DNA of 53,236 bases from a virus. Below the pieces are notes generated by a model. That model was not told the origin of the DNA. It ran no database searches and was given only the letters and a program-made list of their open reading frames with translations. Each line of letters starts with the position of its first letter. The stretch's first letter is position 1. The translations under genes and the position numbers were made by a program. The stretch is from IMG/VR virus record IMGVR_UViG_3300035099_000117, positions 1-53,236 of that record. One strand, written 5' to 3'. Positions 11,961 to 52,042 of this stretch are shown in pieces.

Positions 11961-12923
11961 CTACGCGATGCAGTTCAGCCACAAATAGCCAGCCTGAGCC
12001 CGCACGAGCCGCACGTCCCAAAACGACCGGCACTCGATGAATTCGCCTTCGCGAATCTCCCAGCGATATCGGTACACCGCCGGGCCGCCTCCTGGAACCG
12101 TGTCCGAGAACCAATAGGAGTAGCCCAGGGCGGGCGTCCGCACCGCCGGGGTGTCCGGCACAAAGGCGAGCAGAGCGACCTTCGACCAGACGAAGTCGAG
12201 CGGCGAAGTGGCCGCGTTCACGCTCCCGAATTTTCCGCTGGCGTATCCCGCAGAAGCGTCGTACAGCGCATTCAGGATCACCACCTCGCCCACGTCGAAC
12301 AGTCCGGCGAGGATGTCCGGCGTGATGACGCCGCGTTGGGTGTACTTGATACGGTCGAGGATCTTCGGGTGATTCTTCAGCGCGATGAACGTGTCGTAGC
12401 CGAGGCCGAGCTTGCTGGCCTCGCGCGTCGCCCCCTTCAAGATCGTCGGCTTCTGGGCCTCGATGGCCGCTATCGGATCCGAGTTCACGTAGTCCGACCA
12501 CTGGTTCGGCCCCGAAAGGGTCGCGCTGGTCACGCCAGACGTGATCAGATTGAACGCGGCGAATTCCAGGTCGAGCCAGATGATCTCGGTGACCTCGTTC
12601 GTCGTCGTGACGTCGACCTCGAAGCCCGGCAGATTCGATGCCTTGCGCTCCGTGTCCGACACCAGCTTCTTGATGTAGTGCGGCGCGCACAGGTAGGCGT
12701 CCAAGATGATGTTCGAGCGAATCATCTCCCGCGCCTCGCCGCCGGGAAAGTACGCCGTGTTGTAGCGGTGAAACCGCTCGAAGCCCGCCTTCGGAATCCG
12801 TCCGCTGATCGTCGGCACGGGCACGCGCGGCAAGAACTTCTGCGCGGCCAGGCCCGGCTGCGTGAACTCCACGGACACGTTGCTCAGAATTTGATCTGGA
12901 TAGATCGCTGGCGTTGCTCCCAC
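11961..12923 (-). CDS. Major capsid protein (HK97-fold, Mu/gpE-like type)
   Basis: 320 aa from GTG 12923 (MGATPAIYPDQILSNVSV) behind GGAGGTGTATC. The order protease/scaffold, decoration, this gene is the standard head order. Family-like features: EFTQPGLAAQKFLPRVPVP near the N-terminus, VDVTTTNEVTEIIWLDLEFA around 103-122, then the TLSGPNQWSDYVNSDPI stretch near residues 134-150, a hallmark region in this capsid group. A diverged copy of that stretch recurs as a fragment at 41.3-41.4 kb. C-terminal YRYRWEIREGEFIECRSFWD is typical of the group. Confidence 0.85.
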   Translation of the reverse strand: MGATPAIYPDQILSNVSVEFTQPGLAAQKFLPRVPVPTISGRIPKAGFERFHRYNTAYFPGGEAREMIRSNIILDAYLCAPHYIKKLVSDTERKASNLPGFEVDVTTTNEVTEIIWLDLEFAAFNLITSGVTSATLSGPNQWSDYVNSDPIAAIEAQKPTILKGATREASKLGLGYDTFIALKNHPKILDRIKYTQRGVITPDILAGLFDVGEVVILNALYDASAGYASGKFGSVNAATSPLDFVWSKVALLAFVPDTPAVRTPALGYSYWFSDTVPGGGPAVYRYRWEIREGEFIECRSFWDVRLVRAQAGYLWLNCIA

Positions 12924-32752: not shown

Positions 32753-33257
32753 GCAGGCGGCTCGCAACCCTTTCGTGGATTTCATATCACCCTTGGCAAG
32801 CCGCCTGCGCTTGCGAAGACGCCAGCCGGCCTTTGGATTTCACAAAATTGCTGGGCGTCTTCGCATTCACCTTTCGGGGTGGCCCACAGTCTTTATGTGG
32901 ATTCCACCTGAGAATTGGTAAGCCACCCCCTCGACGCTGGCTTCAGCACGGTCCGTCTGGTTTTCAGGCGCGAGGTGGCTGAAGCCTCCGCTTTCCACCT
33001 TCTGGCGCGACGCAGCAATTTCGGGTTGGTTTTCATCGTTACCGTAGCCGCAATCGCGCCATCCATGCCATGCACCGGCATAGGCTCGATGGTTTTCAGA
33101 CCCGTATTGGCCGTACGCATAGCTTACTCTCGCCTACGAGGGAGACGGCACTCCCACGATGGATTACAACATTGGTGTGGCCGCCTCCCCTGAAGGCATC
33201 GTTCCGAGGCCGACATCGAATCGCTGGTTTTCAGATACTGCGTGGCCGGCATCGAAT
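32753..33257. repeat. Structured dual-spacer repeat array, part 2 (8 units), TIGR-like
   Basis: Eight tandem units at spacings of 58-70 nt. Core (plus strand) at 32777, 32835, 32899, 32959, 33028, 33091, 33161, 33226, consensus GG(T/A)TTTCA. In all eight, CA lies at -12/-11 and G at +12 after the core, with T at -1, and TG at +10/+11 in seven of eight (TA in the unit at 33028). Between these fixed points sit two 9-nt segments that differ in every unit. Outer arms are unique to each unit but mutually complementary (for example 32813-32823 with 32854-32864, 11 bp; 32939-32947 with 32978-32986, 9 bp). Geometry recalls TIGR arrays with two 9-nt spacers. Transcribed strand unknown. Confidence 0.85.
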
Positions 33258-34258
33258 CTTTTCCCATTACCCGCAACCCAGATTCGCTTCAAAATTTCTT
33301 TCATCATCTTCCGCCGCGCCCGCGCGCCGCAATGTCCCTGCTTCGTCTTGCAATTCGGGCATTTCGCATCGTGCGCCGCGAATTCCTTGGCATATTCCGC
33401 CTCGTAGAACGCTCGCCAGGGATTCGCCCGGTTCCTGATTATCGCCGTGCCTACCAAGTAAACCGCCGTGCGCATCGCCGGCGACCAATGCGACGGCACG
33501 CCCCGCATCCGCTTTGGCGCTTTCCCATTCTCCACCGATTGGCCGCAGAATCGCCAGAATGCCGCCACGCTCGGGAACCTCTCGAAGCCTCCAGAGAAGG
33601 CCACGAACGCCGCCGCTGAAATCCACTCCTGGACATGCAGGATCCTCCGCACCATCACGCACTCCGGAATCTTCGCCGCCAGCTTCCCGATATAGGTGTC
33701 AAGCTGCGTGCCCTCTTCTGAGACCACCGACGTGCGAATCTCGCTCAGTTTCTCTAGCGCTTGCTTGAATAGCGGTTCGGCCTTGATCGAGTCCTCATCG
33801 GCCAAACCGATGTTCCGGGCTTCTTGCTTCACCGCCCGCACCGCGTCTCCGTAGAAGCGAACGACGGCACCACGAAGCGAGAGAGCGTGCCGCAGCTGAG
33901 CGATATCCGGTCGGGGCTGGAATTGCCGGAAGATTACATTCGGCAATTTCGCCCATGTCGCAACAATCTCTTCCGGCGGAAGATTCTTGGCGATTCCCGT
34001 TTGATGCCAATGAGTATAAAGCAGCTTCACGCCTCGCTCCGCCAATCCGAACAAGAAGCTGTCCGTGGCGCGCACCGCCGTCAGACGCACAATGCCTCCT
34101 GTTTTCAGTGATCTAACAAAGTCGTTCAGCTTTGCTCCGGTCAGGCGCTCAACGCCCTCACCGTTCGAGACATAAGCCGTAGGTATCCGTCTGCCATCGG
34201 TCTTCTCGTAGCAGACATGTAGAGCAATGATTTTTTCCTGGTTGGATTTCATCTGCAT
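33164..34258 (-). CDS. IS110/Nop-like protein, candidate Tas-type RNA-guided protein
   Basis: 364 aa from ATG 34258 after AAGGAG. The N-terminal half resembles the IS110 DEDD region in layout (GGIVRLTAVRATDSFLFGLAERGVKLLYTH, then a long helix PRPDIAQLRHALSLRGAVV) but the acidic tetrad is not clear, so nuclease activity is doubtful. Residues 230-290 (FWRFCGQSVENGKAPKRMRGVPSHWSPAMRTAVYLVGTAIIRN) resemble the IS110 Transposase_20 / Nop RNA-binding region. C300, C303, C310 form a Cys knuckle. The stop TAA lies inside the loop of array unit 7. Adjacent to the dual-spacer array and an HNH gene, it fits a Tas-like RNA-binding protein. Confidence 0.7.
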   Translation of the reverse strand: MQMKSNQEKIIALHVCYEKTDGRRIPTAYVSNGEGVERLTGAKLNDFVRSLKTGGIVRLTAVRATDSFLFGLAERGVKLLYTHWHQTGIAKNLPPEEIVATWAKLPNVIFRQFQPRPDIAQLRHALSLRGAVVRFYGDAVRAVKQEARNIGLADEDSIKAEPLFKQALEKLSEIRTSVVSEEGTQLDTYIGKLAAKIPECVMVRRILHVQEWISAAAFVAFSGGFERFPSVAAFWRFCGQSVENGKAPKRMRGVPSHWSPAMRTAVYLVGTAIIRNRANPWRAFYEAEYAKEFAAHDAKCPNCKTKQGHCGARARRKMMKEILKRIWVAGNGKRFDAGHAVSENQRFDVGLGTMPSGEAATPML

Positions 34259-34272
34259 CTCCTCTCCTTTTT

Positions 34273-34344
34273 GCGCCGGGTTCGGGGCGAGGCTTTTTAC
34301 CATCAGGGTCGGAGTCTAAGCTGACCTCGCCCCGTGGCCCGGCG
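34273..34344. other. Large two-part GC hairpin before the IS110/Nop-like gene
   Basis: Outer arms 34274-34280 and 34338-34344 (CGCCGGG with CCCGGCG) and inner arms 34283-34292 and 34325-34334 (10 perfect bp) enclose 32 nt. It covers the leader just upstream of the RBS at 34258. No U tract follows on the minus strand, so it is not a plain terminator. It could insulate or regulate translation of the gene, or be a degenerate array relative, but its loop lacks the core motif. Confidence 0.7.
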
Positions 34345-35998: not shown

Positions 35999-36943
35999 TC
36001 ACAGTAGTTTCCTAAAGTACAAGACCCAGACAAATGGATTTAAGCCCCAGCCGAACCCCCGCTTTTCGTTGATGGAATCCCAGAAGTGGCGAAAAGCGGC
36101 AGGGGCGCTTCCCTCCGGACCCAGATTGCACCCGTCCTTGTTGAAGCCCTCCGCATAAGCGTCCTGTTCGCCGATTTCCTGTACTCGCTCGACGCGGATG
36201 CCAGTGATTTCAAGCCTTCGGTGTCCCCCTACGGATGGGAACCACGATTCCTTGAGCCATCGCTTGCTGTTCACTATTCTTGAGACCTGAGATTGACTGA
36301 TTGAGAACTGGTCGGCGATATCCCTTTGGTAGATGTCCTGCTCCCAGTAGAGGCTGCGAATCTCATCTACCTGGGCGCGTGTCAGCCCAGCGCTACCGTT
36401 GTCCTCGCCGCATACCTCAGCTGAACGTCCACGTTTGACCTTGTCTCGGATGTTGTCATCGTTTGTTCCGAGATACAAATGACCGGGATTAACGCACCAC
36501 GGTAGGTCGCAGGTATGGAGCACATGCTGTCCCTTAGGAATACTGCCCCCATGAAGTAGCCATGATGCACGGTGGGCGGCAATCTCCATCCCGTCCCAAC
36601 GAATGGTGCCGTATCCTTTGCGATTCGTTTTGCCAAACCATTCCCAGCAGGATTCGAATTTGTAAACGCGGCTCCAAAATCGCTCCTCCTTGGGGATGCT
36701 CTTAGTGAAGGATGCTCCTTGGATTATCCAAAGGCGGTCGCCGGGCTGACCGTAGGGGCATTTGATGAAAACCCGATCACGCACGCCCGTCGTGCTAACC
36801 TGAACCGCTTTGAACTCGGCGGTCAACCGATAGTCCCAACCAAGGCGAGGTTGTGGCTTGATGACCCGCCGCGTCTGCGTCTTGCGGCCTTCCAGGATCG
36901 CCCGTACCATCGAACCGCTGAAGAGGATTGGCACTTCTTTCAT
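35999..36943 (-). CDS. ASCH-type phage protein with in-frame HNH endonuclease insertion
   Basis: 314 aa, RBS GAGGAGC. Residues 1-72 (MKEVPILFSGSMVRAILEGRKTQTRR ... CPYGQPGDRLW) and 231-314 (KESWFPSVGG ... FRHFWDSINEKRGFGWGLNPFVWV) together make the familiar phage ASCH-like protein. Residues about 80-230 are a complete HNH_3-type unit (CWEWFGKTNRKGYGTI at 99-113; H143, N152, H155 in VLHTCDLPWCVNPGHLYLGT; then an HTH, YQRDIADQFSISQSQVSRIV). The insertion keeps frame at both ends. No intein splice residues (terminal Asn, Cys/Ser/Thr) are seen. Confidence 0.85.
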   Translation of the reverse strand: MKEVPILFSGSMVRAILEGRKTQTRRVIKPQPRLGWDYRLTAEFKAVQVSTTGVRDRVFIKCPYGQPGDRLWIIQGASFTKSIPKEERFWSRVYKFESCWEWFGKTNRKGYGTIRWDGMEIAAHRASWLLHGGSIPKGQHVLHTCDLPWCVNPGHLYLGTNDDNIRDKVKRGRSAEVCGEDNGSAGLTRAQVDEIRSLYWEQDIYQRDIADQFSISQSQVSRIVNSKRWLKESWFPSVGGHRRLEITGIRVERVQEIGEQDAYAEGFNKDGCNLGPEGSAPAAFRHFWDSINEKRGFGWGLNPFVWVLYFRKLL

Positions 36944-36955
36944 TTTGGATGCTCC

Positions 36956-39822: not shown

Positions 39823-40699
39823 GCCGTTGTGCCTCCTGTTCGATTTCCAGCATTATCCTTTCGTGTTCGCGGTCTTCTTCCGCCGTGGATTGTCTCTTGC
39901 CGATTCGCGGCGTGATCTCCCATTGATGGCGCTCCAGGAATCTATCGGCCCGCTCGATGCGATCATTCTCCCATTGTTCACATTTTTTCCACAGTTCCAA
40001 TCCCTGCATGAGCCGTGTCCGATAATCGGACGTCTTGATTTCCGTCAGAAAAATCTTGGCGGTCTTTTTCTTGTCTCCCCGCCGATGCGCAGGATAGGCA
40101 AACCAGAAATCCTCGAAGCCTTCGGGCCAGGGAGGTTTTGGGGGAAGCTTTATTTGATTGCTTTCCAAATCAAATAAAGCAGGGGGATCTTTAATCTCTG
40201 TAGTAGTTTCTGGTATTGCTTGTCCCTTTTTGTCCGACCGTGATCCCTTTTGGGCACTCGATAAGCCATTTTGGGACAATCGACCGGTCACTTTTAGCCA
40301 TTCCATTATGACTTTTGGCTTAAACAGGAAATGTCTGGTCCGGTCAAATTTGTATCGGGGATTTGGATTCCGCATCACAAAGATCACGCCTTTTTTTTCG
40401 AGCAGATCAATCGCGTCGGCAATCGCTTTGCGTTTGAAAATCAAAATGCCAGCCTCTAGGTCTTCGGCGGTATGGAATTGGATCAGGGATTCATTCTGCG
40501 TGGGTGGATCGCCGTGCAACTTCTGAATGGTATTTTCCTGCTCGGCTTTCTGTGACTGCTCTAGCCTGATGTTGTGCCAGTATTCGAGGAAAGATAACAG
40601 GGCGGCGGCACACTGATTGCCTTCGCAAAACTCAATCTGCCATTTGCGAATAATTATTAGCGGCTCACTATTTGGATGTGAAATACAAGACGACCTCAT
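39782..40699 (-). CDS. Winged-helix replication initiator / replisome organiser-type protein
   Basis: 305 aa, RBS GAGGAGGGAGT. N-terminal winged helix is visible in CEGNQCAAALLSFLEYWHNIRLEQ (25-48) followed by a LILIFKRKAIADAIDLLEKKGVIFVMRNPNPRYKFDRTRH-type wing near residues 85-122. Later segments are charged and low complexity, then a helical end (LEIEQEAQRRAAQRIQQRN). Layout matches phage replisome organisers that open the origin. It precedes the helicase loader-like gene. Confidence 0.72.
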   Translation of the reverse strand: MRSSCISHPNSEPLIIIRKWQIEFCEGNQCAAALLSFLEYWHNIRLEQSQKAEQENTIQKLHGDPPTQNESLIQFHTAEDLEAGILIFKRKAIADAIDLLEKKGVIFVMRNPNPRYKFDRTRHFLFKPKVIMEWLKVTGRLSQNGLSSAQKGSRSDKKGQAIPETTTEIKDPPALFDLESNQIKLPPKPPWPEGFEDFWFAYPAHRRGDKKKTAKIFLTEIKTSDYRTRLMQGLELWKKCEQWENDRIERADRFLERHQWEITPRIGKRQSTAEEDREHERIMLEIEQEAQRRAAQRIQQRNAAT

Positions 40700-40790
40700 A
40701 CTCCCTCCTCAACAGGGAACTGGGGCCGCCGGTTGAGGCAGCGGCCCCCTGGAGATGCTTCCATATGGCCCCGGCCAAGGGCCCGCGTCT

Positions 40791-41231
40791 TTAAGATATA
40801 AAACTGCCGCCATGAATGTCAACCTTTTTGTTGCTTGCGTTAGCTTGGCGCGTCAGGCTCTTTTTGCTTTTTAGGAAGCGCGGCGCGGGATATCTGCTAT
40901 CGGGGCGCAGGCGTTTGCTGACCTTGTTTCTACGCCTCTGCGGCGGGATCTCCGACGTCTCCACAGCCACTTTCTCTTTGCGCGGAAGTGCGCGTCGAAA
41001 ATCATAGAGTACATGTTGGATAAAATTCGCCACGCATTCAATGCCGCACAGATGTTTAGCTAGAGAGCAGTGCGCGATCCCCTCATCCCATGTCGCAAGA
41101 CTGACTAAAAGGTTTTGTGCGGGATTGGGGCCGAATCCGGTGAACCAGCCGTCAAGCTTCGGGTCGTCTGACTTTCGCGAGCACTGGTCGCACGTTGCTT
41201 CGATTTCGGTGCTCGTTTGTGTCTTGTACAT
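40791..41231 (-). CDS. Cys-rich unknown protein
   Basis: 146 aa (MYKTQTSTEIEATCDQCSRK) with AAGGAGAATTAG as RBS. C14 and C17, with later HCSLAKHLCGIEC (around residues 54-66), suggest a zinc site. The C-terminal half is basic (RRRNKVSKRLRPDSRYPAPRFLKSKKSLTR). Just downstream of the capsid fragment at 41.26-41.44 kb. Function unknown. Confidence 0.6.
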   Translation of the reverse strand: MYKTQTSTEIEATCDQCSRKSDDPKLDGWFTGFGPNPAQNLLVSLATWDEGIAHCSLAKHLCGIECVANFIQHVLYDFRRALPRKEKVAVETSEIPPQRRRNKVSKRLRPDSRYPAPRFLKSKKSLTRQANASNKKVDIHGGSFIS

Positions 41232-41257
41232 CTAATTCTCCTTTTTCCCTTGGTGGT

Positions 41258-41440
41258 GATGCGCTCGGAATTCGTATAGTCGGACCACTGACTGGTGCCG
41301 GAGAGCGTGATCGACTGCGTGATGATGCTGGAATCCAGCGCCTTCGAGGCGACCAGGATCTTGCGCCGCAGATAGATGAGGTCAGTGAGCATCTCGGTGA
41401 TGTCCACATCCACATCGGTGGCTTGGTCGGACAACTTGTC
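41258..41440 (-). pseudogene. Fragment of a foreign major capsid protein gene
   Basis: The minus-strand reading frame (about 60 codons) contains MLTDLIYLRRKILVAS followed by TLSGTSQWSDYTNSER, closely matching the capsid stretch TLSGPNQWSDYVNSDP in this phage's own major capsid protein (12.47-12.55 kb). The preceding DVDVDITEMLTDLIYL pairs with DVTTTNEVTEIIWLDL. The differences show it comes from another capsid lineage. Only the middle of the gene remains, joined between a zinc-ribbon gene and a Cys-rich gene. It lacks start, N-terminus and C-terminus. Confidence 0.8.
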
Positions 41441-41693
41441 ATTCTGACCGGATTCCACGTATAATACGACGTTTCTCCGCTAGCCATTCAGCTGCCAAAC
41501 GGATAGCATCCCTTGTAACAAGGCGTGCACTTCCAGCTAGATAGCGATTTCGGCGTTTTACGAGAGCCTTGCGTCTTATCCTGGCCACAGGTCGCTTCCA
41601 GGCCCAGTAAGCGCCGGTGCATTTGGCCGAACACGAGACTTGATTCTCGGTCTTGGGCTCGAACGGCTTTTGACACCAGCGGCAGCGTTTCAT
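41439..41693 (-). CDS. Small zinc-binding, Arg-rich protein
   Basis: 84 aa (MKRCRWCQKPFEPKTENQVSC). Cys4, Cys7, Cys21 and Cys25 form a zinc knuckle of the HNH-less type. The rest is strongly basic and helical (KALVKRRNRYLAGSARLV). RBS GGAAG. The last codons overlap the capsid fragment by one or two bases. May bind RNA or DNA. Confidence 0.68.
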   Translation of the reverse strand: MKRCRWCQKPFEPKTENQVSCSAKCTGAYWAWKRPVARIRRKALVKRRNRYLAGSARLVTRDAIRLAAEWLAEKRRIIRGIRSE

Positions 41694-41703
41694 GAGCTTC
41701 CGA

Positions 41704-41913
41704 TCAATATGAAAGTGGCGATCCTTTCAAAACTGCTTGTTCCAGGGCGCGGCGAGCCTGCTTCCAGTTAACCGTGCGCCCGTGGCAGCAGGTGAACAGC
41801 TTCCGGGCCTGCTCGACATCGTACTCGCTTCCCGACGGGCCGACTTCCTTGCGCGCCTCTAATTCCGACAATGGGCGGGCAGGCTGTTGTTCTTCGCTGT
41901 AAATACATCCCAT
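41704..41913 (-). CDS. Small early protein, unknown
   Basis: 69 aa (MGCIYSEEQQPARPLSELEARKEVG). Strong RBS TAGGAGAT. Helical C-terminus (VNWKQARRALEQAVLKGS). A CC pair at residues 42-43. No family recognised. Directly follows the 326-aa recombination-associated gene. Confidence 0.65.
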   Translation of the reverse strand: MGCIYSEEQQPARPLSELEARKEVGPSGSEYDVEQARKLFTCCHGRTVNWKQARRALEQAVLKGSPLSY

Positions 41914-41922
41914 GTTTATCTC

Positions 41923-42903
41923 CTACCGTGTCCGCTGGACGAGTGAGGCCTCAGGATAGACTTCGATCCCCGGAATGTTCGTGGCCGATTTCATAGCGCG
42001 AACGACGCGAGCGACTTTCGGATAGGATTTTGCGTCGAACGGATCGTCCGGCATCAGATACTCACGGGGGATCAGGTCGGGATTCTTCACCCGGAACAGC
42101 CAGTTCTCCCGTTTGCCCGTCCCGGCCACCTTGGGCATGGTGGATTCCACGACGATGGGAGCCATAGAGGGCATAGGGGGAGGCGGTGGAAGCGGCTCTG
42201 CGGGCGCGCTAGGGCCATTGGCGGCCGCTTGTAGAATGTCCTCGGCAACGTCGGGATGTCCCAAGGCCCTGGCCTGTTCTGCGGCTTCCTCGGCTTCTTT
42301 CCGGGCTTTGGCTTCTTCGGCCTTCGCTGCGGCCTGCCGCACCAAGTCTTCCAGGTTGGAAACGTCGGCATCCGTGAGCTGGTCGAGGGGCTTTCCCACC
42401 AACGCCTCCAGGGATTCTATCTGCTCACCATAGGAGAGCAGCTGATCGAACCAGTGGCGCGCCGTGTAGATTCGCGCTTCCCGCTCGCGTTCCCGGCGCG
42501 CCTGTTCCTCTTGCTGCCTTCGGATCGTTTCCTGCTGCTGCTCGAATCGGAGAATGGCCGACCCCAGAATCTCGATGGGGGGATCAATCAAGCCAAATTG
42601 CTTTTTTTCCTGAGCACAGATCATCGAATGCAAACGGTGTGCCATGCTTTTCTGGGGATCGAAAGTCTCCCTAATCGAGGTTCCGTTCTCAGTCGGCCCA
42701 TTGCGCATGATGAGTAGCCTTTTCCGAGTCTCCACCACCTTGATGTATTCCCGATTGTCTAGAATCACCAGATTTGGTGTGATTCCGCGGATAGCTTCTT
42801 TGATGCGCTGCTCCAGAGGCTTGCTTAATTCCGCCGTCACGGACTGCGAGAGCGTGACGATCTGGGCGAACTCGGGGCTTATGCTTTCAGCTGAAGTTCC
42901 CAT
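41923..42903 (-). CDS. Recombination-cluster protein, conserved phage type
   Basis: 326 aa, RBS AAAGGAGGCAGAC. N-terminal half helical; middle is a long Arg/Glu-rich coiled coil (ETIRRQQEEQARREREREARIY, residues 124-145). The C-terminal WLFRVKNPDLIPREYLMPDDP ... VVRAMKSATNIPGIEVYPE is common in phage proteins next to annealing proteins and exonucleases. Likely a partner of the recombination pair upstream. Biochemical role unknown. Confidence 0.72.
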   Translation of the reverse strand: MGTSAESISPEFAQIVTLSQSVTAELSKPLEQRIKEAIRGITPNLVILDNREYIKVVETRKRLLIMRNGPTENGTSIRETFDPQKSMAHRLHSMICAQEKKQFGLIDPPIEILGSAILRFEQQQETIRRQQEEQARREREREARIYTARHWFDQLLSYGEQIESLEALVGKPLDQLTDADVSNLEDLVRQAAAKAEEAKARKEAEEAAEQARALGHPDVAEDILQAAANGPSAPAEPLPPPPPMPSMAPIVVESTMPKVAGTGKRENWLFRVKNPDLIPREYLMPDDPFDAKSYPKVARVVRAMKSATNIPGIEVYPEASLVQRTR

Positions 42904-42915
42904 GTCTGCCTCCTT

Positions 42916-43608
42916 TTAGATGTTGATTCCGTACTTGTTTCTTCGCCAGATGGCGACAGTCAACGCGGCCCGGAAAACATCATAGTCTGCCGGGTCGTCG
43001 AACAGTTCGAGCCTGTAGGGTTCCCCCGTGGCATCCGGCATGAGGCGGACGCCGTACCGCGCCCACTTGTAGGGTCTCACGTCCGGCGGGCCGTATTCTG
43101 CCAGCAGACCGAGTTCGTAGCCCGCGAGCTGAACGCCCCACCAAGGCTCGTCCTGCCGCGAGCACTTGAGGTCGAGGATGACGGGCTTGCCTGCAAGCAG
43201 GCCTGCCCGGTCGAGCGTCATGCCGTACTGGATTTGTGCGATTGTCGGACGCAAGCGAAGTTCGATGGCTGGCCGATCACACATATCCATGTAGGCTCTG
43301 AATTGCGCTCGCACTTTAAACGCTTCCCAAGCACGCACGTAATCGCCGATTTCAGGATCAATCCGATCCCACGGTCCGCGCACCTTCTGAGAAACAGTAT
43401 CCCAATGGTAGCCATGCAAATCCAGGAATGCCGTCGCCTCGTGCACCGCGCTGCCGATGATTCGTGCCCTCGGGTCGTCGGGGTAATGGCTTGCATCCGT
43501 GACATGCGATAGTACGAGCGCTTGAGTCACGGAAATCAACGGTCGCCCGTCGTCGGAGAAATACCGATGCGCTGCTTTTTCAGAATTCCTCGAATCCCCT
43601 TTGTGCAT
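42916..43608 (-). CDS. PD-(D/E)XK nuclease, RecB/Cas4-like
   Basis: 230 aa, RBS TAAAGGTC; start lies inside the annealing-protein gene end. Active-site elements: H56 (GSAVHEAT), E116 (IELRL), D133 (TLDRAG), D146-L-K148 (VILDLKCS) and Q160 (GVQLAGYELGLL). The pattern is that of RecB-type exonucleases used in phage recombination. It probably resects ends to give single strands for the neighbouring annealing protein. Confidence 0.82.
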   Translation of the reverse strand: MHKGDSRNSEKAAHRYFSDDGRPLISVTQALVLSHVTDASHYPDDPRARIIGSAVHEATAFLDLHGYHWDTVSQKVRGPWDRIDPEIGDYVRAWEAFKVRAQFRAYMDMCDRPAIELRLRPTIAQIQYGMTLDRAGLLAGKPVILDLKCSRQDEPWWGVQLAGYELGLLAEYGPPDVRPYKWARYGVRLMPDATGEPYRLELFDDPADYDVFRAALTVAIWRRNKYGINI

Positions 43609-51070: not shown

Positions 51071-51571
51071 TCAGCCCATGACGCGGCGCAGCCAGCCGAG
51101 AAGGAATCGTTTCTTCTCGGGTTCGGATGCGTCCGGCTGACGAATAACCAGGTCGGCATAATAGTACGCCTGCCGAGCGCGGAACTCCCGCAGCAAAAGC
51201 TTGGGCTCCAGAGCATTGGCCGCTTCGCGCGTCTTCGGACCGAACATGCCGTCGATAACTACGGGACCGACGGAGAGATAACGTATCGCCTCTTGGAAGA
51301 TCCGGACAGCAGGTGGACGTCCGACATTCACGCCGAAGTCGAATAGTTCGTCGGCGACTTCCTGGCTTGAGATCCCGTCATAGAGCGGATTCCAGTACTC
51401 CGCGCGATAGATTTCCTTCGCTCGCTCGACGGTCAAGGCAGCGATGTCGATGTTCGGGTGGAACCGCTTCGAGATGCCGAATCGGGTCTCTCCCCCTGGA
51501 TCGAGCAAATCATGGACATAGCCTCCCTCCCATGCTAGCGTTTTTTTGACAGATAATTCAAATTGGCTCAT
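51071..51571 (-). CDS. GH108-type N-acetylmuramidase (endolysin)
   Basis: 166 aa. Catalytic E15 in WEGGY, followed by DPGGETRFGIS (residues 24-34), the signature of the TtsA/secretion-type lysozyme family. Length is usual for the family. No signal peptide, so it needs a holin or export partner. The RBS AAGGG lies in the end of the LAGLIDADG ORF just upstream. It follows a spanin and membrane proteins, a lysis cassette. Confidence 0.88.
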   Translation of the reverse strand: MSQFELSVKKTLAWEGGYVHDLLDPGGETRFGISKRFHPNIDIAALTVERAKEIYRAEYWNPLYDGISSQEVADELFDFGVNVGRPPAVRIFQEAIRYLSVGPVVIDGMFGPKTREAANALEPKLLLREFRARQAYYYADLVIRQPDASEPEKKRFLLGWLRRVMG

Positions 51572-51576
51572 ATTAT

Positions 51577-52029
51577 TTACCCTTGGTTCCTTTTGATAAG
51601 CCGATCTGTGATTGGATCTCTTCGTGTATGCCGAGGCCCAACAAATTTTTGGTCTTTTCCCAATGCAGTACCTACTTGACTTAACTTATGGCTGATTCTT
51701 AAGAGCGGTGAGATTTCATTGAGAAATCTTCTAGCATCTGCGGAATAAGCCCGCCAGTGAAATACTAATCCGTAACTCCCTTTATTTTGTGTTACCAAAC
51801 CAATACCCAATTTTTGCTTAATTGTGTCCAGAATTGATCGCTCTTTTTGAGAAATGGAAGCTTCTAACCTATACCGGCCTCGACCATGGTGATAGCAACC
51901 ACACGAACTTTCTCCCTCAAAAAAGCCAGCGAGCCAAACAAGAAAATCACCTTGCGGGTCGAGAACATCGTGCACCCATCCACCTTCCCAAACGAGCGTT
52001 TTGTTGACCGCGATGTCGAAACTTGCCAT
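51577..52029 (-). CDS. Lysozyme N-terminus fused to LAGLIDADG homing endonuclease
   Basis: 150 aa from ATG 52029 (MASFDIAVNKTLVWEGGWVHDVLDPQGD), with GGAGG 5 nt upstream. The ATG at 52032 is too close. Residues 1-28 are a diverged copy of the GH108 N-terminus including E15. Then WLAGFFEGE (residues 32-40), a LAGLIDADG motif, and typical family features (YRLEASISQKERSILDTIKQKLGIG). No lysozyme C-terminal part follows. The intact lysozyme begins 5 nt after the stop. The 5' exon plus intron ORF seems to have inserted before the second lysozyme. Confidence 0.82.
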   Translation of the reverse strand: MASFDIAVNKTLVWEGGWVHDVLDPQGDFLVWLAGFFEGESSCGCYHHGRGRYRLEASISQKERSILDTIKQKLGIGLVTQNKGSYGLVFHWRAYSADARRFLNEISPLLRISHKLSQVGTALGKDQKFVGPRHTRRDPITDRLIKRNQG

Positions 52030-52042
52030 CATGTCCTCCTTA

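What the first reader, a model, noticed from the sequence alone, without database searches (positions are those of the whole stretch)
41258..41440. Stray piece of a different major capsid gene in the early region
A 60-codon frame reads like the TLSG..QWSDY.NS region of HK97-type capsids and differs from the phage's own copy. It sits between two zinc-type genes 29 kb from the head genes. It is evidence of past exchange with another phage lineage or of a deliberate decoy or guide target source.
Basis: seen in the sequence. Interest (0 to 1): 0.7.

Follow-up and report, generated by a model that had tools for sequence, protein, structure and literature searches.

The report
Decaying scrap of another phage's capsid gene
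A 180-base piece of a different phage's capsid gene really is lodged between two early genes of this phage, but it looks like a leftover of ordinary gene exchange that is rotting by random mutation rather than a working part.

Summary
Window 41251-41430 (read on the minus strand, 180 bp) is 92.8% identical in DNA to the inside of a full-length capsid gene of another phage (L003); similarity stops abruptly at both ends. The phage's own capsid, 28 kb away, is only 45% identical in protein there. The closest bacterial copies found are capsid genes in Terriglobia (Acidobacteriota) genomes. The piece lies between two small genes, 8 bases after one stop and 19 before the next start, in a cassette that a relative (G001) lacks. 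Of 13 differences from L003, 12 fall to the window copy by majority; 9 change the amino acid, as expected without selection. Two hit residues invariant in 107 of 107 capsids. I saw no well-placed ribosome site, no RNA structure beyond chance and no reverse transcriptase. Best reading: a small foreign gene fragment caught by recombination and now drifting. Exchange is supported; decoy or guide target is not. An assembly chimera is unlikely but not excluded. Interest is low.

The parts
41251..41430 (-). foreign capsid-gene fragment, 180 bp, 59 codons of capsid frame
   Evidence: 92.8% DNA identity to L003 3564-3743 inside a 359-aa capsid ORF; similarity ends at both edges; phrog_1005 match
41439..41693 (-). 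84-aa zinc-finger gene just upstream in the direction of transcription, intact, weakly NinG/HNH-like; 8 bases lie between its stop and the piece
   Evidence: 62% identical full-length homologue in L083-L086 that ends within a few residues of the same place; Pfam NinG E 2.4e-4, below its gathering score
40791..41231 (-). 146-aa cysteine-motif gene downstream; 19 bases lie between the piece and its ATG and hold a ribosome-binding-like AAAAAGGAG
   Evidence: sequence; weak relatives (26-37% identity, mostly over part of the protein) in 18 of 399 Terriglobia-class genomes; none in viral contigs or phages
41704..41913 (-). 69-aa ORF of the same variable cassette
   Evidence: ORF with RBS-like GGAG; no PHROG or Pfam match
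40823..41919 (-). variable cassette (1,097 bp): in relative G001 there are 343 bp here with a different 66-aa zinc-finger ORF and no capsid piece
11961..12923 (-). the phage's own major capsid gene, a different lineage from the fragment
   Evidence: phrog_1005 E 1.1e-55; 95% identical in protein to the G001 capsid

Best explanation
A 180-bp internal piece of a major capsid gene of an L003-type phage (a lineage whose closest bacterial copies found are in Terriglobia genomes) was inserted by recombination into the intergenic gap of a variable accessory cassette in the replication/recombination region of this phage. It left both neighbouring genes open and most likely carries no function. It has since gathered about 12 mutations as neutral DNA. 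Shown: foreign origin, sharp limits, intergenic position, absence from the one relative at hand, and a mutation pattern without visible constraint. Inferred: the direction of the event (gain here rather than loss in G001), entry by illegitimate or short-homology recombination during co-infection or with a resident prophage, perhaps helped by exonuclease-like genes 0.5-2 kb away, and that the piece is inert.
For: DNA match to L003 with abrupt edges. A tree of 11 DNA rows joins the window copy to L003 with support 96/92, L003 branch 0, window branch 0.08. 12 of 13 differences fall to the window copy by majority (four outgroups); with seven outgroups 11 of them occur in none, one is shared with L002, and the thirteenth is unclear. 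9 of the 12 are nonsynonymous; neutral simulation 7.2 +/- 1.6. L093 against L003: 3 nonsynonymous, 13 synonymous, Fisher P 0.0095 against the window's 9 and 4. E to K and P to R at columns invariant in 107 of 107 capsids (102 distinct rows). Relative G001 shares blocks mostly 83-85% identical (range 66-90%) over 24,821 of 53,236 bases, but has other DNA at this site and only one phrog_1005 match. The 8 of 399 Terriglobia-class genomes that match the fragment do so inside capsid frames of 305-363 aa. Exonuclease-like (phrog_69, phrog_10477) and replication-initiator-like (phrog_270) genes stand close by. A passage of PMC3945230 says that small gene fragments are exchanged much more often than complete modules.
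Against: Only 13 differences over 180 bp, so the constraint test is weak. Against the seven other relatives of L003 the nonsynonymous share is 33-40% versus 69% here, and Fisher P lies between 0.047 and 0.16, so the contrast is clear only with the closest one. No exact empty site was found: G001 differs across the whole cassette, so direction and junction homology are open. The frame has no stop codon, although 62% of neutral runs have none either. [quoted passage not shown] No reads were available to test the junctions.
Confidence: 0.85

Rival explanations
1. Assembly or library chimera: the piece was joined to this contig from another phage of the same community.
For: No second copy in this setting was found; no reads or coverage are available here; L003 and G001 come from IMG/VR records with neighbouring dataset numbers (3300032070 and 3300032069), so a related community is plausible. 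G+C content does not set the piece apart from the window (58% against 59%, flanks 53-55%).
Against: A chimera with a working capsid gene should differ from L003 largely at synonymous sites; instead 9 of 12 assigned changes alter the protein, two at residues invariant in 107 of 107 capsids. A join to an already decaying prophage copy would escape this argument. Both edges fall between open genes and leave the ribosome-binding sequence of the next one.
Confidence: 0.08
2. Working element: a translated capsid peptide that poisons assembly of a competing phage, or acts as a decoy or trigger for a capsid-sensing defence.
For: Sense orientation with the surrounding genes, open frame of 117 codons; capsid-sensing defences exist (PMC9712102, search listing and start of abstract only).
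Against: By eye no start codon in the capsid frame has a well-placed Shine-Dalgarno; mutation pattern as neutral and invariant residues broken; not present in relative G001.
Confidence: 0.04
3. Nucleic-acid element: a retroelement template, a guide or CRISPR decoy target, or a structured RNA.
For: A non-self capsid stretch would be a natural target sequence (inference).
Against: No RVT_1 match in the record; no Rfam match at E<=1 in 40000-43000; fold z-score +0.85, 161 of 200 shuffles fold at least as well; no repeat array in two simple scans; read from the surrounding genes' direction the RNA would be sense, not antisense, to capsid mRNA.
Confidence: 0.02
4. Remnant of an L003-type capsid gene that the phage's ancestors once used in full.
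For: Same broad capsid family (phrog_1005).
Against: The own capsid is shared with G001 at 95% protein identity in a block of shared head-region DNA; the piece is 28 kb away and no other donor-type DNA was seen around it, although donor genes were held only near the capsid.
Confidence: 0.01

Closest known systems
Mosaic recombination patches of temperate phages (PMC3945230 and PMC2327257, passages only)
   Same: Small foreign gene fragment from another phage or prophage, in a phage with exonuclease-like recombination genes; a passage of PMC3945230 says small gene fragments are exchanged much more often than complete modules.
   Different: Here the fragment is out of place (capsid DNA in the replication/recombination region), has no homology to the site outside its edges, and is decaying; those papers stress homology-driven exchange.
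Morons / accessory cassettes of lambdoid phages (recalled, no paper read)
   Same: Extra DNA between two phage genes that a relative lacks.
   Different: A moron carries an expressed gene with its own signals; no such signal was seen for this piece.
phrog_1005 major head proteins in Terriglobia genomes (L093, L095, L092 and others)
   Same: The 180 bp derive from this lineage.
   Different: Only 59 of about 310 codons are present; an invariant E and an invariant P are lost; it cannot be a capsid.

Membership tests
phrog_1005 major capsid protein | significant profile match | tested here: met
   E 4.2e-5, 7.5e-6 in six-frame search
phrog_1005 major capsid protein | full-length coding sequence | tested here: not met
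   positions 100-157 of 315 only; no donor homology outside 41251-41430
phrog_1005 major capsid protein | invariant residues kept | tested here: not met
   E and P columns, 107 of 107 in capsids, are K and R here
gene fragment / pseudogene acquired by phage recombination | close homologue elsewhere as intact gene | tested here: met
   L003 92.8% DNA, 359-aa ORF
gene fragment / pseudogene acquired by phage recombination | relaxed constraint after acquisition | tested here: met
   9 nonsynonymous and 3 synonymous changes assigned to it, neutral expectation 7.2 +/- 1.6 nonsynonymous; contrast with capsid pairs P 0.0095 for the closest, 0.047-0.16 for seven others: low power
gene fragment / pseudogene acquired by phage recombination | absent at the site in a relative | tested here: met
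   G001 holds 343 bp of other DNA there; one relative only, exact empty site not seen
gene fragment / pseudogene acquired by phage recombination | recombination signature at the junctions | tested here: inconclusive
   no homology beyond the edges; only short two-copy repeats nearby, one of 11 nt (10 of 11 alike) straddling the 41430 edge and recurring inside the piece
moron (expressed accessory gene) | own promoter and start site | tested here: not met
   no minus-strand promoter-like site at the piece; no in-frame start with well-placed Shine-Dalgarno, judged by eye
DGR template or retron | reverse transcriptase in the element | tested here: not met
   no PF00078 match at E<=1 in the record; the record may be incomplete
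decoy or dominant-negative capsid peptide | peptide made and active | not testable with these tools
   needs expression data

The most novel reading that the evidence does not exclude
The phage keeps a slice of a competitor's capsid gene in its replication/recombination region that is translated from a weak GTG or TTG start and interferes with the competitor's capsid assembly or with capsid-sensing immunity; the amino-acid changes of its own (such as E to K and P to R) would then be what turns it into a poison.
Probability: 0.03. Interest if true: 0.65.

Novelty: new member of a known kind. Interest (0 to 1): 0.17.

Why it matters
It is a clear example of how phage mosaicism can leave a non-functional scrap in an intergenic gap, with the donor lineage identified and the mutations since the transfer assigned to one side. 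It links two capsid lineages whose relatives both occur in Terriglobia genomes. It also warns against reading such fragments as decoys without a test of constraint.

Tried and rejected
Searches for the same piece elsewhere: an exact 26-mer from it in viral-contig hits only L003. Of the 80 loci kept (of 141 relatives reported), 79 lie in frames of at least 260 aa; the exception, L046, is a capsid interrupted by in-frame stops under table 11, not evidently a stray piece, and it was dropped from the 107 capsids. The other 61 relatives were not seen. In some searches the genomes were 399 drawn from a larger class; only the two best candidates of each genome were scored, so weaker second copies could be missed. 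DNA search of 40500-42500 in phages: none. Protein search of the piece in phages: four weak hits, best E 4e-4. Relatives of the 146-aa neighbour: none in viral contigs or phages, weak ones in 18 of 399 Terriglobia-class genomes, so whether it travelled with the piece is unknown. Repeats near the edges are short two-copy matches, which the tool says are often chance. A six-frame comparison of the window with the loci held then (three self loci left out, best hit of each segment only) showed no second scrap of the donor lineage; donor-type DNA was held mainly around the capsid gene, so this is a partial look. Class-wide DNA search thresholds were E<=1e-6; at E<=10 in ten named-locus genomes only short chance-like matches were added. 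Structure prediction was not used: a 59-residue decaying slice would not tell.

Paper searches: none of the titles listed is on this case; the lists were capped (for example 20 of 1,606). From PMC3945230 and PMC2327257 I saw passages only; PMC9712102 only as a search listing and start of abstract.

Full report
What is there. The 60-codon frame is real and lies on the minus strand. It matches the phrog_1005 'major head protein' profile (E 4.2e-5; E 7.5e-6 in a six-frame search of the record). The phage's own capsid gene at 11961-12923 is a clearly different sequence: 45% identity over 53 residues. DNA comparison with a viral contig, L003, fixes the limits: 41251-41430, 180 bp, 167 of 180 bases identical, no gaps, inside a 359-aa capsid ORF. 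Directly outside these limits identity falls to about what chance gives: over 40 bases and slides of up to six bases, 4-12 matches on one side and 6-16 on the other.

Where it sits. Eight bases lie between the stop codon of an 84-aa zinc-finger gene and the piece, and 19 bases between the piece and the ATG of a 146-aa gene whose ribosome-binding-like AAAAAGGAG is intact. A homologue of the 84-aa gene in L083 ends within a few residues of the same place, so that gene was probably not cut. Genes for exonuclease-like proteins (phrog_69, phrog_10477) and a replication-initiator-like protein (phrog_270) stand nearby, which supports the label early region. A relative, G001 (the record behind L082), shares DNA in blocks, mostly 83-85% identical (range 66-90%), that together cover 24,821 of 53,236 window bases. 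Between the end of the exonuclease-like gene (41920) and a conserved promoter-like TTGACA...TATCTT (40822-40793), G001 has 343 bp with another small zinc-finger ORF where the window has 1,097 bp. So the piece lies in a variable cassette. G001 has one phrog_1005 match only, its own capsid. Gain in the window or loss in G001 cannot be told apart from one relative.

Where it came from. The best DNA relatives of the piece among the loci held are L003 (93%), then a Terriglobia contig, L093 (85%), then others at 72-81%. A scan of genome contigs with the L003 capsid gave 17 loci, the best 11 labelled Terriglobia or Acidobacteria. In 399 Terriglobia-class genomes, 8 match the 180 bp at E<=1e-6; comparison with the capsid search of the same class shows all 8 places inside capsid frames of 305-363 aa. 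Relatives of the phage's own capsid also occur there (42 of 399 genomes at E<=1e-6, best identity 44%), so a meeting of both lineages in one host clade is plausible, though the host of this phage is not established.

How it has evolved. Of the 13 differences from L003, 12 fall to the window copy by majority of four other capsid genes, one is unclear. With seven others, 11 of the 12 are seen in none of them and one is shared with L002. A tree of 11 DNA rows gives L003 a branch of 0 and the window copy 0.08, joined with support 96/92; it is the only well-supported fork of eight. Nine of the 12 changes alter the amino acid; random placement of the same kinds of change gives 7.2 +/- 1.6. L093 against L003 shows 3 nonsynonymous and 13 synonymous changes (Fisher P 0.0095 against the window's 9 and 4). 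Seven farther relatives show a nonsynonymous share of 33-40% against 69% here, with P from 0.047 to 0.16, so this line alone is not strong. Two changes, E to K and P to R, strike columns that hold E and P in 107 of 107 capsids compared; these rows include near relatives (102 distinct) and are not all independent. Together this is what a capsid fragment without a job should look like, and not what a chimeric join to a working capsid gene should look like. The lack of a stop codon means little, since 62% of neutral runs also have none.

What it does. Nothing found here suggests a function: by eye no in-frame start has a well-placed Shine-Dalgarno, there is no Rfam match at E<=1, RNA folding is no better than shuffles (z +0.85), no reverse transcriptase matched in the record, and two simple scans showed no repeat array. 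The most likely mechanism is entry by illegitimate or short-homology recombination during co-infection or with a resident prophage, followed by neutral drift; this step is inferred. Passages of PMC3945230 report that small gene fragments are exchanged much more often than complete modules but argue that illegitimate events are probably much rarer; a passage of PMC2327257 gives illegitimate and homeologous recombination a similar share. Without an empty site the choice cannot be made here.

Verdict. It is a new instance of a known kind of thing, and of low interest.

Noticed in passing
51577-52032 (-), next to 51071-51571 (-): An ORF matching LAGLIDADG_1 (E 1.4e-4, at the Pfam cut-off) begins with about 28 residues (by eye) like the N-terminus of the gene that follows it (53 bp at 74% DNA identity): a second captured gene start in this window. 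No Rfam family matched there at E<=1. That the following gene is a lysozyme is recalled, not tested.
   Followed up: partly
36002-36955 (-): A phage protein whose middle looks like an HNH endonuclease inserted in frame; residues 90-159 of the frame match a G001 protein at 41%. The HNH label is recalled.
   Followed up: no
41436-41465 (+): A promoter-like TTGTCA-18-TATAAT (11 of 12 matches) just outside the edge of the piece, pointing antisense into the neighbouring genes; only two sites this good in the window. Probably chance; the L083 homologue shows no TATAAT there.
   Followed up: partly
33164-34303 (-): Transposase-like gene (phrog_4285 E 1.1e-19; Pfam IS116/IS110/IS902 family below cut-off) kept in G001 at 86% protein identity, so perhaps a resident phage gene rather than a recent insertion.
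   Followed up: no
L046 4400-5800: A capsid gene with many in-frame stops under table 11 in an AT-rich contig, as if a stop codon were reassigned.
   Followed up: no
48414 and 49888: The only pair of exactly repeated 20-mers on the same strand found in the window.
   Followed up: no
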